From: Tubulanus polymorphus
Taxonomy: Eukaryota > Nemertea > Palaeonemertea > Tubulaniformes > Tubulanidae
Reading direction: 5' to 3'
Assembly: GCF_964204645.1 (NCBI RefSeq)
Contig: NC_134030.1
Coordinates: 3,325,855 to 3,389,854, forward strand
DNA: 64,000 nucleotides
Below are positions 10,593 to 63,760 of this stretch, in pieces. The notes under the pieces were generated by a model. It was given only the letters and a program-made list of their open reading frames with translations, had not been told where the DNA came from and did no database searches. Every line of letters starts with the position of its first letter. Within the stretch, counting starts at the first letter, position 1. Position numbers and translations under genes: made by a program.

Positions 10593-10690
10593 TGATGACT
10601 GCTTAAATTTATTTCAGTGCCGCTAGTTCCCTTTGACCAGCTGGTATCTGCTTGCCTACATGAACTGCCTGCCTCGTTTATCTCTAAAAG

Positions 10691-11130
10691 TTTTACGGAG
10701 AAGATAAAAACCATGAGACGAACTAAGTCACGATCCTGTGTCCTTAGGTAAAAGAAAAGATTCATTGTTTTTTGAATAGTTGAAGTATGAAATGATGTAC
10801 TTTTTTGTTTTTGTTGAATTAATCTCTCAGTCTATCTCAGAGTTTTATAGAGAAAATGAAAACCATGGGACGAACTAAGTCACGATCCTGTGTCCTTAGG
10901 TAAAAGAAAAGATTCATTGTTTTTTGAATAGTTGAAGTATGAAATGATGTACTTTTTGGTTTTTGTTGAATTAATCTCTCAGTCTATCTCAGAGTTTTAT
11001 AGAGAAAATAAAAACCATGGGACGAACAAAGTCACGATCCGTGTCAGGAAAAGGAAAGATTCATTGTTATTCGAATAGTTGAATTATGAAATGATATAAA
11101 ACGTTTTTATTTTTGAATAAATCAATCTTT
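10691..11130 (+). repeat. 152-bp tandem repeat, three copies, in the BAG1 3' UTR
   Basis: Copies lie at 10691-10842, 10843-10994 and 10995 to about 11130 (the last diverged and shorter). Each has ACCATG followed by a short open frame of about a dozen codons starting MGRTKSRS or MRRTKSRS; in copies 2 and 3 the context is the strong ACCATGG. Copies 1 and 2 also keep TTAG before GTAAAAG, a possible splice donor. Confidence 0.9.
11106..11121. terminator. Back-to-back polyadenylation signals
   Basis: AATAAA on the plus strand (11116-11121) would end BAG1. TTTATT at 11106-11111 is AATAAA on the minus strand and could serve the convergent ABC transporter gene, whose stop codon is at 11519. Only four bases separate the two signals. 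Confidence 0.55.
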
Positions 11131-31363: not shown

Positions 31364-34300
31364 CTAAACAGACGATTCCAATGACGTTGAATTGTGATCT
31401 TGTTCGGGTTCGAGATCAAACCTATAAATAAATATCTTGAATTAGTCATACACCAATAGGATATACTGAAAATCAGCAACAGGTGGCCACAGTGAAAATG
31501 TCAAATTTGCAGCTTGTCCATACAGCTTTTATTTGACTTGCTCTATCCCTGACTAGAAAGTAGTTTTCCCTGGCTCGAACAGCAAAGAATCCAATTAAGT
31601 AATACAGTTACATTCATACGACATACCGGGACGCGCAATCTAGCGATCCCATCAAATTTCATATTTTTTTTTACAAAATTCCCTTTTTTTCTAAGAAATT
31701 AAATTCCCTGACTTTTCGGTGATGTCTATCTAGGTAAGTGGCGCCACCCTGTGAGGGTAATAATACTAACCATTCAGTAAGAGCTTTAGTTAAATCAGTA
31801 GTGCCGAGATTAATCAGAATCTGTCCCATTTCATGTCGCGCCATTGAGAATACACTGACCGAGTTCTTCACGGCTATATCCAGTTGACACGATTTCAAAT
31901 CAGTTTCATTAACGGGAAACTCAAATCTATCGATAAATAATCAAATAATCATCACAATCTAAAACAGGTAGAAATTGTTGTAATGTGTTGCGAATAAAGA
32001 CCTGGAGCATCAAACACACAATGGAAGAATTGAGATATTTAGAACATTAAAAATTTTGAAATTTAACTTTGACCACAGTTCACTACCTTACATTTTCGTA
32101 TATGGAATATGAACATTACAAGCTTAACACGCATGTATATCTACAAAGGGTTGACTTGTGAACCAATCAGAGTTTACTATAGGGGGGGGGGGTAAGAAAC
32201 CTTTAAATTCAATTCTTTGAGGTAATTTTCTAATTTCTTACATCTTAAAACTGAAGTTAAAAATTCATAAATTTTAAAATGGCTTACGTTTCATCAAACA
32301 CCGGGTTCAACGTGTTCTTTTTAGTTTGAGTTTTCTTTTTTCCGATCGTATTTTTCTCAGGAAGCAGATAAATTCGGACGTACGGGTCGGCGAGTCGATC
32401 GTCATCGCAAGGAACCAAATTACTAGAAATAGAAACATGTATTAATAAATAGAGTTGATAAACCCAAAACTAGGGACTAAACTGATCAATCATCAATAAG
32501 AATGAGTGAGGAGAATGTGTTGATACGTACATGCATTTATGTATAACAACCACTAAACGATTTCTCTGTTGGCTGTATCTAAGTGTTAGCTGTATACGCC
32601 CGAGACCATTTGAGCCTGCCGTCTGTTCGCTTGTGCTGAAAATAACACATACACATCAGTTAACAAACATTTACACATTTTCTGTCGTTTCAACAAAAGT
32701 GAAATGTTCTGAAGAACTTGTTCTCAATGAAGATATTCTCTAAATTCAACGATCATCAAAGATGTTCAACTTCACGGAATATTTTCTGATTTTTCACTCT
32801 GTCACAAGAGGCGCCAGTTTTAGTTATTCCTACCAATCATTACATAGGAAATAGTCTGGGAAAAATTCAGCAACATTTCATAGAGTTACCTTCGAAAACA
32901 GAACAAAAATTATTCATTTTCACAAACACCAAAACCACCTATACAATCAAACCCGGTTAAGTCATCATCAGATAAGTCGTCACATTGTAAGTTGAGAAGA
33001 TACACGATATCTATGTAAGATGAATACATGAGAAATCGCACAATAATTCGGCCAAAGATGTCAAGTTCTTGAGTAAAAGATGGTCCATCTACGCCATCAC
33101 TACACAAGTTTCAGCCATCATCATCATCATCAGGGGTAGACTACAACGGTGTACTGATGATGCCTTCAAGTTATACAAATATATATCCCTTTTACTCAAG
33201 TACTTTACATCTTTGGCTGAATAATTGTGGGATTTCTCTTGCAAGTTGTCACATTATTCAAGTCATCACAACTTTTTCGTGTAGGCCTAATTCAATTCAC
33301 TGAGTGTAAGTCATTATTTGGATAAGTCATCGGCATAGTGACTGTCCCAGCTTGACAACTTAAACGAGATCGACTGTACGATTGTTCAGTAATTCTAGAG
33401 ATTTTTCAGCACAATCATCTCACTGAATATTGATCGTTAAATTGGACAATCATTTCGTGAAATCAATTCCGTAAGTGTTTCATTGATTATAATTGGTTTT
33501 AACTGGAAGAAAAATGTGCTACGAATTAAGTTGAAGGGAAAGGAACCCACGAAACCTAACATTGCTCTTACCCCTTCCGTCTTCGCGAGAATCCTCGTAA
33601 AACTTTTCGTCTTTTTACAGATATTAAATATCATACAATACGTACAAATCTTTAAGCATCAAGCATCGAAACAATTCATTTATTTATCAGTTACAAAGAT
33701 TGATTGATTGATTTTATCGAAATCAGATATTGAAATCACGATGAAGTCTCTAACCACGCGCGGTCATCACGTGTAAAATAAGAGTTTAAGTTTCTGCGAA
33801 GAAGAACGGAAAGACAGTGGTCCATTCGCGATTTGGAATCTTACTGTTTAGAGAACCACCTAAAGAATAAACAGAGTTCTCTTCAGTGAAGATGCCGCAA
33901 CCGAGTTACTTAAACTTGTAACAAAATAAATTGCCCATGGGCAAAGTGTGGTTTACCTTGAAAGCTAGAGGTTGTTTGGAGTAAGGGCATTGCTTGAAAA
34001 ATCTTTTTAATTCGTGACTTCAAAGATCCACAGTTTATATTGTATTTTATCTTTCCTAAAGAATTATTTTGTAGTCAAATAAGACCAAAGATATACATTT
34101 GTTTGCGGTCCACGTCTAAAAGTTTGTAGGGTACAGGTAGGCACGGCAGGGAAACTATTTTATATTTTCAAAAAAATATGTTTAATATAATATGAAAAAA
34201 TATTCAAATAAGGCCATCCCAAAATAATTGTCTGTTTGCTGCAACACCGACTCAACTTTTCAGGATGAGTTGGTAGGTAGGTAGAATTTTTTTTTTGCAA

Positions 34301-41100: not shown

Positions 41101-44100
41101 CGCACTCGGCTGAGAGAAGAATGATAAATCTCTAAATGGACGACACAATAGTTAAATAGTATAAGCAGCAGCATTCAGGATTCGTTTGACTGTGGCAGCT
41201 TTCACCTCATATATAATTTACCTGAATTATGTGGCCTCGAACGTCTTGTATTGGAACTGAATATGATATCGGCTATAGCAGTAATATATATGATTATTGT
41301 TATCATTGATTAATTCAGATTAGAATACAAGAAATAGAGAGGAAGAGAGAGAAGAAGAGAGAGAGGAAGAGGGGGCGCAATCGAAATAGCTTTAAATCTC
41401 ATGAAAAGCTTTGAACATTCTGAGTAAAACGTTGCAAGTTGAAGCTTCTTAGAACATTCGTTATTCATATTGACTGAGTTCGTATTTCATTATGCAAAGT
41501 AGTGGAGGTTTATGGGTGAATTTTTGAAAACATTGGCAAAAAGACGAACAATGCAGAGAGAATCTTCGAACTAAGACTGTGCCACTGGACCCTGGGGTCA
41601 GTTGCGCACTCATGGCTTAGATCTAGTCTTAGTTCTATAAACAATCTTAAGATCTAAGACTAATATCGGACTTACATCACTGTACAACTGGGCCCAGTAT
41701 TTTAGCATCTTTACATGTAGGTAATGACAGTAGAAATGCATTCATAATATGTATTTGAAGAGAAGATATATTTTCAGACATTCTATGAATGATACGTTGG
41801 GCTGCATGTTCTAGTTACCTTTATTCTCGAATTGTACTGAAGAAATAAACCAAATTTAAAAAAAAAAAAACTAAAACGAAAAAAAACATCGTTCGCAAAC
41901 TGGTGTCGGTATTTTTTTCGATTGAACGATTAAATTAAAATCTCGAAAACAAAAATAACGGTTATAAAAAGTTTGAACGAAACAACGAAATAGAAAACGG
42001 GAACATTTTGTAAGGAATTACTCGTAATACGTACAATTAGATATTTACGTGAAATAACTCCTCGATTCTAATTAAAATATTACCATAAAAAAACTGTTAG
42101 AGAAAATAGCACGATCCAGTTACATCAGCTCAGTTCGACTATATAAAGTTAGGGCCTTTCTTTGATCGCTTATTTTTTAGTCTTCCTTCGAGTTTTCATC
42201 TCAATTTTTCAATAGCAAATTTTTTTTGTTATGTCCGTTTTGATTTTCAATTTAGCAACTTGTAAAGTTGTGTTCATCTAAAATCTCGTGGTTTGCAAAA
42301 AAAGTTTTTTTTTCCCATTTTTCCCCATCATAAGAATCAAATTACTACAATTTTCACTCCTATTTTTATTCTTTTTTCTGCAGTCCGTCAGAGGGTTTTA
42401 TGCAGAAAATACTAAAAATAATAATAAAATGATTATTATTTTCTTATTCTGTTCCCTTTTAAAATGCCTATTATAAATTTTTTTTTCAATTTCAATTTTT
42501 CTCTCTTCGCCCTCCCATTTCCCTTAGATTTTAAAATGCCTATTATAAATCTTTTTTAAATTTCAATTTTTTTCTCTTCCCCCTCCCATTTCTATCCGTC
42601 ATACTCCAAGTGATTAGAAAAAAAGCCTAAGAGTATTTCATTTCCAATATTCTAGGCCATAACTCAAATCAGAGCTGTGGAACTGGATCCGGCATTTCAG
42701 ATTGCATTGTGTGAGAGAATGAGAAGTGAGTGTGGCACCAAATTCATTATAAATATCAAACCCTGATTCCAACATGCCGATAAACAAGAGTTGCCAACTC
42801 TATACTACGAGAGAACAATCCCTCTGGATCCGGACCGGATAATGAGAGGAAATCAGTCTTTTCCAGACAATTCCATTTCATGATTTATAATAAAGCTGTT
42901 TAAAAACATTCAAAGAAAACTAGAAGAGAAAATTATTATGGACGATGCAGAGAATAGAGAACTGTTTCCAGATCTTGAATATATAATATATATATATATA
43001 TGTATCTATGGAAGCTAGATTGATAATACGGCGCTGTCCCTGGCAAGCTGGGATGGTTGGCAACTCTGAATGATAAGTTAAAATACATGCAGTCGACAGT
43101 ATTTATTCGTTTATTGATCTCAATAGTGTATTTATTATTATTGATTCATGTGCAGTCAGACAATTACCATACGATTGGGTATGCAAGCTCGAAAAGACAA
43201 TCTCTGCAAAAAATTCAATCAATTCAAATATTGATGATGACTTGCTCGACCGACCCACCGTCCATCTCTGTCACCGTTATCATTCTTAAGTTTTATTCAT
43301 CATCGCGAAATATCGAAATCAAACTCAGGGAATTTAGACATAAACCAAAAAATTAATCATTCTAGTGTTTATTTTTCTTATTCAGTGCTTTGATGCGATT
43401 ATGAAAGTGAAAATCAGTACGATTTATAACGACGAATCAAAGAATATCTAATAATCATAATCTAAAGAAACCGGTGTCAACTAGAAGCAAATCATTTCTA
43501 CGATAAATCAGTGTGTTAATTAGAGCGAGCCGTTGATTAATTAAATTTCACTACATACTCACCGGTAAAGATTTAGCGTTGTCTAATTTCACCATGAGAA
43601 TAGCGGCGGAAAGTTGATGATGTTGAGTTTCGACACCGGTCTGACGAATATTAAACAACGTCTAAAAAACAATCAGAAAAATACGCTTTTAATTCATTTC
43701 ATCAATTCAGATAGTTTCAGACGCAGACAGTGAAATCAATTAGAATTCATACAATGAATAGTTAAACTATGTGAATTACGTACATGAAATATCACCAATA
43801 TTACGAGAGAAATCCCACAATAACGAAGCCAAGATTGAAAAATTTTATATCGGAATGATTATATTTGAGGAGCGACGTTTCGGGTAACAACTGTTAGCCA
43901 TCATCAGGCGTACTCAAATACAATCATTCTGATATAGAATTTTTCAATCTTGGCTTCGTTATTGTGGGATTTCTCTCGTCATCATCATACACGGATATTG
44001 TGTATCTTCTCGTCTAATGACCAATATTCACTCTATTTCACTTCGATTTGTTACTTACTTCAATTTGAAATATCAAAACTCATAAAATTAATACCGCTAT

Positions 44101-60875: not shown

Positions 60876-63760
60876 ATGGATTTTTACTGTGATTTGTGTA
60901 ACATAACTGTTAACTCTGGTAGGTCAGATTGTGGGTCTTTATTTATTCTATACTTAAAATGATCATTCTATAGGCCTATTCGATAAAACTCAATCTCACA
61001 CGGTAGAGTCACTCGGGTCGTACTAAACACCGTCAGGAACCGTCAGACACCTTGTCTAACCATTCGATTCATTGCTATAGTTGCGAAAAACGGTTTTGAT
61101 CGAGTAGATTTTTAGATTCTTCTTGAACTTTCTGCCAACTCGGAAAATCTGGCGTCTTGAAAAAATTTGTTCTCAAGGCAAATGAATTTCCACAGGTTTT
61201 TTGCCCAATTACTGAGTCGAATTTGCGCAGTAGTGTTCAGTAGTGTTGATTGTACAATAGGCCTAAAATATTGTAGGCCTAATTCATTTCCTGATGGTGT
61301 TATTAGTATAACCCGTGAGTTCCTGACAGGGTCTGACGGTTCCTGACAGGTCCTGATGGTGTTAATAGTATGACCGCTCGCGTGGACAGAGTCTCAAATT
61401 CAATTCATTCAAAATCAAAATTACTTCATTACACCTTATAGCATATCACGGTGTACACCGTAATAATAAAGACTTCGGTCTACTCTACAAAAATCCTCAT
61501 AATCATCTTTTGTCTTTTTTTTTTAATCAGAAGCGATTATGGAGACTCATATTCGTGGAAAGAAACATCAGAAAAATGTCGAACGTTCGATACAAACAGC
61601 AGAACGTTCCGTGTACGTCAGGGGTTTCCCGAAAGGTCACAACGCCGATATCATTCTGGAGCGTTATTTCGAGAAATTCGGAACAATCGAAGAAATCGTC
61701 GTCGAGGCAACGAATCAGGTAAAATATACGCAATGGTTTCAGGGGGTACGAGTCGAGCGGGGTACAGGTTCCAAGCTAAAGGGTCCAGGGTGAAGGATTG
61801 ACGGGTACAGAGTCAATTGATCTTTACCGGCATAAACTGACTTTTAAACTGTAATCATCAGGACCCAGTTCCACAGTTGTGAGTTAGAGTTAACTCTGAG
61901 TTAAACTTAGTTCATTTTCAATGAGTTAACTTTAGAAATAAGATAAAAACCCACTATCTACGGATTAAAAGAATTTAAAAAACAAGAATTTATTTATTCA
62001 ATCTAAAACATAGAATACACGACGTTTTGATCTCACCCTAGAGATCATCGTCAGGTGTATGTAACGTCGTGTATTCTATATATTTTAGATTGAATAAATA
62101 AATTCTTGTTTTTAAATTCTTTTAATCTATAGATAGTCGGTTTTTATCTTGTTATCCGTTCACCGTGTTTGAGTGTGGTTATCGTTCTATTAACTTTAGA
62201 GTTGAATCTTAACTCGGAACTGTGGAAATGGACCCAGGTTTTTTTTCTATTTTCAGAATTTTGCTCTAGTTCAGTATAAGAATCTCGGATCAGCGTGCAC
62301 GGCTCTGCAGCAGAAACGACATTACATCGGCAATCATCAGCTGGTGCTCATGCCGAAAAAATCGACATCGTCGCACGTAGATCGACTCGGTCTGACGAAA
62401 AACCCTTCACATTCGGAAGCGAAACAAAAACCGCAGATTGAAGATACAACGTTGAACAGTAGATTGATTAACGCGGATAGTGTAGGTTTTTTTCCATATG
62501 GTATGACCCCTTGTATACCAGGAACCTGAATCAGACCCTGTTTTAACTGTTACAGTTAAATAAAGGGATGGACAGCTTGGCATCTTAGCCCAGTTGTTTA
62601 GTGCACAAGTATTGCAGGTATCTCAGCGTCTATATAGGTTATAATCAGTTTTTAGGCCCCCAGTAGGTAGATGGTTCCAACAGTGAAGCAACCGTATAAG
62701 CAAATAGTGCATTTATTAATCGGTAAAAAACGGGGCTTGAATTTGGGCGAATCTGACCCACAGCAATACTATCATAGATTACATACAGGGACTCTTTTGA
62801 AACCTACAACATTTTTTGATTTAAAATTTGCTGCAGGAAATTATCAATTCCGCATCAAATCGAGATTCAAATTATCATCAAAATTTTTATGAAACGGATT
62901 GATTATGTATTTTGTAGGTGAACGATCAGTTCGGAATACTGGTGTCGGAGTTGGCGTTACCGGCTGATAATTTAGAACTACGACAGATTGTTGTCGATAT
63001 GTTACAGGGATTGTTCGTTCAGTATTTTCCCGGTTGTCAGGTTGTCTCGTACGGTTCCACGGCGACCGGTCTCGGTTTCGTCGGATGCGACATGGACGTA
63101 TTCCTCGATCTGAAACTCTATAAAGCCGTACGCATTGAAGAGGTACCGTAAACGTTCTAAAAATTTACGGGAGTTATCCCACAATAATTCAGTCAAAAAT
63201 GTAAAGTTCTCGAGTAAAAGGTTTGAGCAACCTTTCAGATGTAGACTTAATTGAGAATGAAGTAGTTCACAATCAGAAGCAGCTTTTTTATTCCCAGAGC
63301 ACAAATATCAAACAGTGAATAAGAGGGATCAGCTGCGAGATATCTCTTAGTGACAATGATGGCTGAACTGGAACTATAATGAGATAACTTGTAATGAAAC
63401 AAACAGATGGCAGAGCATCTCACAGTTCATAGACACTAGAATTGATAATGGGTTTGTAGTTGAAAACGGATAATTCTGAGTTGCGGTTTTAACTGTTATT
63501 TTTCAGGCAGCTCAAATCCCGATAAACTTCCCGTATATGAAACACATTCCGGCGTTTCGAGATATGAAACGAGGTTATATGACTCGCGAAGAGCTGGCAA
63601 ATATTTCACGTATCGATCAAGCGAGATTGATCAGTAAAATACTAGTGACCGTTGGTAAAGGAATCACCGACGTATTGACGATACCGAGCGTTCGCTGTCC
63701 TATTGTCAGATTCGTTCATCAACCGACTTCGCAGAGAATCGATCTATCATTTAAAAGCAG
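60876..63760 (+). CDS. TUT1: Speckle-targeted poly(A) polymerase / U6 TUTase, N-terminal part
   Basis: Five exons in phase, 60876-60918, 61531-61718, 62257-62481, 62918-63142 and 63507-63760, give 311 residues; the gene runs off the right edge. Residues 1-30 form a U1-type C2H2 zinc finger (YCDLC ... HIRGKKH). Residues about 42-100 form an RRM (RSVYVRGFPKGH, NFALVQYKN). The nucleotidyltransferase core follows, with YGSTATGLGF and the catalytic pair in CDMDVFLDL; the third Asp is in RIDLSF. TUT1 adds uridines to U6 snRNA and polyadenylates selected mRNAs in the nucleus. All catalytic residues seen are intact. The last visible donor (GTTAGT) lies eight bases from a retroelement insertion. Confidence 0.93.
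61861..62236. repeat. R1 foldback split by a palindromic retroelement
   Basis: The left half, GACCCAGTTCCACAGTTGTG..., and the right half, ...AACTGTGGAAATGGACCC, are the two arms of an R1 foldback, separated by the insertion at 61937-62189. It lies in TUT1 intron 2, ending some 20 bases before the exon 3 acceptor. Confidence 0.8.
61926..62200. mobile_element. Palindromic hammerhead-type retroelement with 11-bp target duplication
   Basis: TTAACTTTAGA occurs at 61926-61936 and 62190-62200. Between them is a palindrome (about 61940-62150; arms AAGATAAAAACCCACTATCT...) and a right tail of about 39 nt. The loop core on the minus strand is CTGACGA, a perfect seven-pair stem II, then AAAACGTC, with a six-pair stem I (ATACAC/GTGTAT). 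The G before the AAA is replaced by A, so self-cleavage is doubtful. Confidence 0.78.
63169..63225 (+). repeat. Single arm of the palindromic element family
   Basis: GGGAGTTATCCCACAATAAT and AAAGTTCTCGAGTAAAAGG match one arm of the 33-kb element (AAATCGCACAATAATTC, CAAGTTCTTGAGTAAAAG). No second arm is seen. Confidence 0.6.

What the first reader, a model, noticed from the sequence alone, without database searches (positions are those of the whole stretch)
43794..44028. Hammerhead-bearing palindromic retroelement with tail and target duplication
The window holds several palindromes whose loops look like hammerhead ribozymes lacking stem III. This one is the cleanest: intact CTGATGA and GAAACGTC, a paired stem II, a stem I from the arms, a 41-nt one-sided tail and a 9-bp duplication (ACCAATATT). 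Target duplications show it moved as a unit. Stem-III-less hammerheads and one-sided tails of some 35-40 nt are known for Penelope-like elements; a small, purely palindromic, non-autonomous form may be little described.
Basis: partly seen in the sequence, partly recalled or inferred. Interest (0 to 1): 0.85.

Follow-up and report, generated by a model that had tools for sequence, protein, structure and literature searches.

The report
Penelope retroelement end, copied twice
The 'ribozyme palindrome' is one of hundreds of short scraps left by a Penelope-like jumping gene that seems to copy the start of its RNA twice, once from each side of a cut chromosome; the strict pattern of these scraps gives a rare view of how this poorly understood class of jumping genes inserts itself.

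Summary
43794-44028 is a real insertion: 9-bp target duplication, inverted arms, hammerhead-type motif on the minus strand, one-sided 35-40-nt tail. Related copies are numerous (484 tails, 1287 arm ends in the 268-Mb assembly). The reading as a palindrome that 'moved as a unit' does not hold. All parts are the terminal repeat of Penelope-like elements (RT + GIY-YIG ORFs, several intact) in the same genome. Each palindrome is two cDNAs of that repeat joined head to head: the tail half starts at the outer side of a conserved hairpin, the other half 35 nt further in.

Of 76 dissected copies, 54 have target duplications of 8 nt or more and none has a second tail. Scored junctions all differ (L001/L002 look alike by eye). 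Inner ends pile up at one position, just downstream of a TATA/Inr-like promoter, i.e. at the probable RNA 5' end, and not at the ribozyme cleavage site. The halves share private variants, so they come from one source RNA.

Best model: both cut target strands prime reverse transcription on one RNA at two adjacent start sites, and the cDNA ends are joined. This agrees with published in vitro work and sharpens it.

The parts
43794..43802 (.). left target-site duplication ACCAATATT
   Evidence: read directly; detected automatically
43803..43914 (-). tail-less half: inverted copy of the PLE terminal repeat, from the inner RT start (ACGAGAG) to position -41 of the repeat
43803..43823 (-). outer end of the tail-less half (ACGAGAGAAATCCCACAATAA), fixed in nearly all copies; 1287 matches with up to 2 mismatches in the assembly
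43874..43907 (-). hammerhead-type core CTGATGA-T-GGCTAAC.AGTT.GTTACCC-GAAACGTC without stem III; predicted cleavage after 43874 on the minus strand; stem II has one C.C mismatch in this copy
43915..44014 (+). tail-bearing half: direct copy of the terminal repeat, truncated at +6 relative to the hammerhead site, so without hammerhead or promoter
43959..43979 (+). TTATTGTGGGATTTCTCTCGT, same sequence as the end of the other half, here followed by the tail
43980..44014 (+). one-sided 35-nt tail CATCATCATACACGGATATTGTGTATCTTCTCGTC; 484 matches to its core in the assembly
43987..44005 (+). hairpin ATACACGGATATTGTGTAT inside the tail; position matches the published RT initiation stem-loop of PLEs
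   Evidence: PMC11167929
44020..44028 (.). right target-site duplication ACCAATATT
32994..33241 (-). older, related one-tailed palindrome of another subfamily (tail 32994-33025, arms 33027-33079 / 33189-33241, decayed hammerhead motif 33108-33133 on minus)
63162..63215 (-). fragment of a related terminal repeat (75% to the arm of the given copy)

Best explanation
It is an insertion product of an endonuclease-bearing Penelope-like element (PLE). Transcription of tandem PLE copies starts at a TATA/Inr promoter just upstream of the terminal repeat, so the RNA begins ~43 nt before the hammerhead cleavage site. The PLE protein cuts both target strands with an 8-16-nt stagger. Each cut end primes reverse transcription inside the RNA, at one of two start sites flanking a small hairpin at the end of the repeat. 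One strand starts outside the hairpin and gives the tail; the other starts 35-40 nt further in and gives the tail-less half. Both cDNAs are copied from the same RNA towards its 5' end, like a strong-stop product, and their ends are joined with short deletions, microhomology or filler. The result is a palindrome with one tail and a target duplication. Shown from sequence: the PLE origin, fixed outer ends, one tail, TSDs, differing junctions, pile-up of inner ends at the promoter-proximal position, shared private variants of the halves. Inferred: that this position is the transcription start, one RNA copied twice, the double cut, end joining. The hammerhead is carried along; the copied RNAs appear uncleaved.
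For: PLE parent: 817-aa ORF with RVT_1 (4e-12) and GIY-YIG (5.5e-6) between direct repeats TATAAATAT-N20-CTCAGTAC-hammerhead-arm-lead-hairpin tail; a subfamily-B palindrome carries a 151-nt unit 100% identical to this repeat. TSDs of 8 nt or more in 54/76 copies; 7 nt or more in only 0.16% of 5700 cross-paired flanks. Exactly one tail: 0/76 have a second, 24/24 in the BLAST sample, 7/7 copies chosen by their arm ends without asking for a tail. Inner ends at -44..-40: 33/69 tail-less halves (expected 3.1, p 3e-26), 18/68 tail halves (p 7e-10); near the hammerhead site 1 and 1 (expected 3 and 3). Scored junctions unique in 76/76. Left-left, right-right and left-right distances equal (0.060, 0.059, 0.059), own partner closer (0.035; 0.024 in subfamily B). 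Private variants shared by both halves 39 vs 9.9 expected, and 15 vs 5.8. No decisive A/B chimera. Long copies end at nearly the same body position in both halves (L110, L131, L134, L135, L137). Published in vitro: both strands cut and extended, two start sites bounding the tail, hammerhead not needed (PMC11167929).
Against: No RNA or biochemical data. Tail-less halves are longer more often than tail halves (46 vs 25, p 0.017; 31 vs 10 in the tail-sampled set), which needs an extra assumption (leading and trailing RT). Intra-palindrome gene conversion could also make halves alike. L001, L002 and L004 share one join by eye; L130 has the same join in the mirror arrangement, which suggests a microhomology hotspot but does not exclude a few copies moving as palindromes. 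In vitro, no difference in start site between strands was seen (PMC11167929), while here the asymmetry is complete.
Confidence: 0.72

Rival explanations
1. Self-priming (fold-back): one cDNA is made from the tail, its 3' end folds back and copies itself, giving the inverted tail-less half; synthesis stops before the tail.
For: Suggested for Adineta PLEs from palindromes at inverted junctions (PMC3846280). Explains identical halves and near-equal inner ends, e.g. the almost loop-free palindromes L135 and L137.
Against: A fold-back copy cannot extend beyond its template, but the tail-less half extends further in 46 of 87 copies, by 170-340 nt in L054, L042 and L064. It gives no reason for the sharp stop at ACGAGAG, where a published second RT start site would lie.
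Confidence: 0.17
2. A small palindromic non-autonomous retroelement that is transcribed and moves as a unit.
For: Shared outer ends and TSDs; L001, L002 and L004 share the same join; L001 and L004 also share arm variants.
Against: Scored junctions unique in 76/76 overall and 53/53 in the tail-sampled set; no left or right arm lineages; no promoter in the small copies; few exact matches to the shared joins (4 and 1), one of them in the mirror arrangement.
Confidence: 0.05
3. Each half is copied from a different RNA molecule packaged together, perhaps held by hammerhead dimerisation through the self-complementary ACGU.
For: Hammerheads with short or missing stem III are thought to act as dimers (PMC7229834 for amphibian retrozymes; own knowledge for PLEs); both halves often reach the same 5' end.
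Against: No decisive A/B chimeras although both subfamilies are common; private variants are shared by both halves, so two RNAs would have to come from one locus.
Confidence: 0.2
4. Ordinary genomic palindrome or foldback DNA transposon; hammerhead and tail by chance.
For: Inverted arms with TSD.
Against: Outer ends are not symmetric, the sequence is the terminal repeat of RT-encoding elements, and simple 5'-truncated copies with TSD exist (L112, L115).
Confidence: 0.01

Closest known systems
Endonuclease-bearing Penelope-like elements (Penelope/Poseidon type), e.g. Adineta vaga Pen2a (PMC3846280)
   Different: Here the commonest insertions are palindromes of the terminal repeat alone; the one-tail rule, the differing junctions and the 5'-end pile-up are quantified; fold-back origin is disfavoured
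PAc, Poseidon of Anolis carolinensis, in vitro system (PMC11167929)
   Same: Stem-III-less hammerhead with the same extra U after CUGANGA and the same GAAACGUC; RT starts internally at two sites bounding the tail; both target strands cut and extended; uncleaved RNA used
   Different: In vitro no strand bias in start site; here each insertion uses one of each. PAc start sites lie inside the ORF; here the tail lies just before the presumed start codon
Metazoan retrozymes (PMC7229834)
   Same: Small, non-autonomous, hammerhead-bearing, low G+C
   Different: Retrozymes are tandem repeats with canonical type I hammerheads and circular RNAs; these are head-to-head and show no sign of cleaved template ends
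Minimal PLE hammerheads (Cervera and de la Pena 2014, own knowledge; such variants are mentioned in PMC7229834)
   Same: Location in the PLE repeat, no stem III
   Different: None established here; activity not tested

Membership tests
Penelope-like elements (EN+) | ORF with reverse transcriptase and C-terminal GIY-YIG endonuclease | tested here: met
   L062:5313-7766:-, RVT_1 4e-12, GIY-YIG 5.5e-6; 4 intact near-identical copies and >10 mostly intact copies of a ~67% subfamily
Penelope-like elements (EN+) | terminal repeats (pLTR), tandem and inverted arrangements | tested here: met
Penelope-like elements (EN+) | optional 30-40-nt tail at one end | tested here: met
Penelope-like elements (EN+) | variable-length TSD | tested here: met
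   8-16 nt in 54/76 copies
Penelope-like elements (EN+) | telomerase-like RT phylogeny | not tested
   no tree built; domain order and pLTR anatomy taken as sufficient
Hammerhead ribozyme (PLE minimal type) | CUGANGA and GAAA-NUH core with stem II | tested here: met
   563 motifs; stem II covariation 0.262 vs 0.104 in shuffles, 23 double changes vs 9.0
Hammerhead ribozyme (PLE minimal type) | self-cleavage | not testable with these tools
   no Rfam hammerhead match at gathering score or with a lax cut-off; cDNA ends show no cleaved templates
Retrozyme | tandem units with canonical hammerhead processed into circular RNA | tested here: not met
   units are head-to-head, no stem III, no pile-up of ends at the cleavage site; circular RNA not testable
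Self-mobile palindromic non-autonomous element | copies share one internal junction | tested here: not met
   76/76 scored junctions unique; exception of 3-4 copies noted

The most novel reading that the evidence does not exclude
Integration of this PLE family requires a protein dimer that loads both cut target ends on a single RNA, one at each of two neighbouring start sites, so that every inverted insertion is a head-to-head double cDNA of one molecule with one tail, from 120-nt scraps up to an 8-kb dimer with an intact ORF in each half; the abundant small palindromes are double strong-stop products that record the RNA 5' end.
Probability: 0.5. Interest if true: 0.75.

Novelty: new variant of a known kind. 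Interest (0 to 1): 0.6.

Why it matters
How Penelope-like elements insert, and why they carry inverted repeats and a one-sided tail, is an open question; the only purified system (PMC11167929) leaves the later steps to be validated. The small palindromes are natural end products in large number. Their rules (one tail always, inner ends at the presumed RNA 5' end, halves from one source, junctions made anew) separate fold-back, two-RNA and one-RNA models, and they argue that hammerhead-cleaved RNA is not the template. They also show that such palindromes should not be annotated as an independent element family.

Tried and rejected
Rfam search: no hammerhead match at gathering score or with a lax cut-off; the MIR847 hit (53 bits, gathering 184) is a long-hairpin artefact. 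Hammerhead cleavage as the source of template 5' ends: rejected, ends are not enriched there. Palindrome moving as a unit: rejected for the family. Simple fold-back priming: disfavoured by longer tail-less halves. The L062 array as an example of a clean left end: set aside because the locus carries a large inverted duplication.

Full report
What is there. The window lies on contig C6 of an unnamed 267.8-Mb eukaryotic assembly. A search with this unit gave 91 BLAST matches, 24 of which were aligned as separate copies; the outer ends are shared, the flanks unrelated, and the centre differs from copy to copy. The tail core occurs 484 times and the arm end 1287 times with up to two mismatches, against none for the reversed controls.

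Parent element. Tails spaced about 3 kb apart led to tandem copies of an element with an 817-aa frame holding RVT_1 and GIY-YIG domains. Four near-identical intact copies and more than ten mostly intact copies of a 67%-identical subfamily are in the assembly. The frame lies between direct repeats of about 151 nt: CTCAGTACGCC, hammerhead CTGATGATGGCT..AGCCGAAACGTY, an arm, TTATTGTGGGATTTCTCTYGT, then a hairpin tail ATACACGGATATTGTGTATCTTCTCGTC, directly followed by the presumed start codon. TATAAATAT lies about 30 nt upstream of CTCAG; this TATA-CTCAG-hammerhead arrangement occurs at 84 places, with matched lengths of 44-47 nt and mostly 45, although the spacer sequence differs between subfamilies. 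This is the anatomy of an endonuclease-bearing Penelope-like element.

How the palindromes are built. I sampled 111 tail loci; 78 had the inverted arm end within 900 nt. After removing two redundant entries, 76 copies were dissected against two reference repeats, subfamilies A and B (the A reference joins a 35-nt stub of L112 to the repeat of L030 only to extend the coordinate). (1) The tail half ends at the tail, the other half at ACGAGAG, 38-39 nt further in, in nearly all copies. (2) None of 76 has a second tail; 24/24 copies from the BLAST sample and 7/7 copies chosen by arm ends alone have exactly one. (3) Target duplications of 8 nt or more occur in 54/76 copies; among 5700 mismatched flank pairs only 0.16% reach 7 nt. 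(4) The inner ends of both halves pile up at -44..-40 from the hammerhead site: 33/69 (expected 3.1, p 3e-26) and 18/68 (expected 3.0, p 7e-10). At the hammerhead site there is no excess (1 and 1). The A of CTCAG, a fitting Inr, is at -41, so I read the pile-up as the RNA 5' end. (5) By score, all 76 junctions differ, with 0-nt joins in 16 and fillers in the rest. By eye L001 and L002 share a join, as does L004; L130 has the same join in mirror arrangement, which points to recurrent microhomology.

Anew, not as a unit. If palindromes were transmitted, tail-side arms would resemble tail-side arms more than the others. Distances in subfamily A are 0.060, 0.059 and 0.059 for left-left, right-right and left-right; the own partner is closer, 0.035 (A) and 0.024 (B). 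Variants shared by both halves of a copy number 39 against 9.9 with shuffled partners (A), and 15 against 5.8 (B). No copy is a decisive A/B chimera. Thus both halves stem from one source RNA, although gene conversion within palindromes could contribute.

Long copies. In L110, L082, L131, L133, L134 and L135 both halves run past the promoter into the body and stop within 0-27 nt of each other; L042, L054, L064 and L081 have a long tail-less and a short tail half. On C5, two intact 817-aa frames face away from each other in a head-to-head dimer of about 8 kb. Its outer ends show no tail on the left, a tail on the right and the shared flank TGATTCGTGACATA (L136, L138), and its halves meet at the same body position, with 2 differences in 989 nt (L137). 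L131-L135 and this dimer were picked from head-to-head promoter pairs or paired frames, so they illustrate and do not estimate frequency.

Mechanism. The published PAc system cuts and extends both target strands, starts internally at two adjacent sites that bound the tail, and uses uncleaved RNA. The genome copies fit this and add that each insertion uses one start of each kind. The simplest account is one RNA engaged by both cut ends: the cDNA from the inner start runs ahead, the one from the outer start follows. The tail-less half is longer in 46 and the tail half in 25 of 87 copies (p 0.017; 31 against 10 in the tail-sampled set, p 0.0015), as expected if the follower is impeded. Fold-back self-priming, proposed in 2013, cannot make a tail-less half longer than its template and is disfavoured, unless later deletions in the tail half are common.

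Hammerhead. The core is conserved and stem II covaries across variants (23 double changes against 9.0 in shuffles; four of the seven pairs were fixed by the search pattern and carry no information). It has an extra U after CTGATGA, as does the protein-assisted PAc ribozyme printed in PMC11167929. Of the 76 copies, 66 keep the whole span in at least one half. Activity is untested. In the given copy the ribozyme lies in the tail-less half, so it reads opposite to the tail.

Novelty. PLEs with hammerheads, inverted repeats, tails and TSDs are known. A search for palindromic non-autonomous PLE forms found no paper on them in the held library, and no quantitative account of the one-tail rule was found. 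I rate it a new variant of a known kind, with its main value in mechanism.

Noticed in passing
L057 (C1:31405584), L058 (C1:31726301), L118 (C4:26583302): The centre of these palindromes holds arrays of a ~23-nt unit from the 5' half of the hammerhead (GTACGCCTGATGATGGCTAACAG-NN) of some 200-400 nt. Either later slippage or repeated copying of the RNA 5' end by a telomerase-like RT.
   Followed up: partly
C1:15218500-15231900 (L062, L121): A palindrome with flanks recurs as an inverted duplicate about 9 kb away on the other side of a PLE tandem array; real rearrangement or assembly artefact.
   Followed up: partly
window 32994-33241: Older one-tailed palindrome of another PLE subfamily with a decayed hammerhead motif; weak target duplication (AAGTT).
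   Followed up: partly
genome: A third hammerhead subfamily (GGCTGTTAGTCAACAGCC) also occurs as close head-to-head pairs, e.g. C1:7856487-7856572 and C2:4468544-4468630.
   Followed up: no
C5:7312900-7321180: Head-to-head dimer with an intact 817-aa PLE frame in each half, one tail, shared 14-nt flank.
   Followed up: yes
window 10683-11123: Three tandem copies of a 152-nt repeat, unrelated to this finding.
   Followed up: no
window 43805-43977: Rfam MIR847 scores 53 bits on the hairpin, far below its gathering score of 184; an artefact of any long perfect hairpin.
   Followed up: yes
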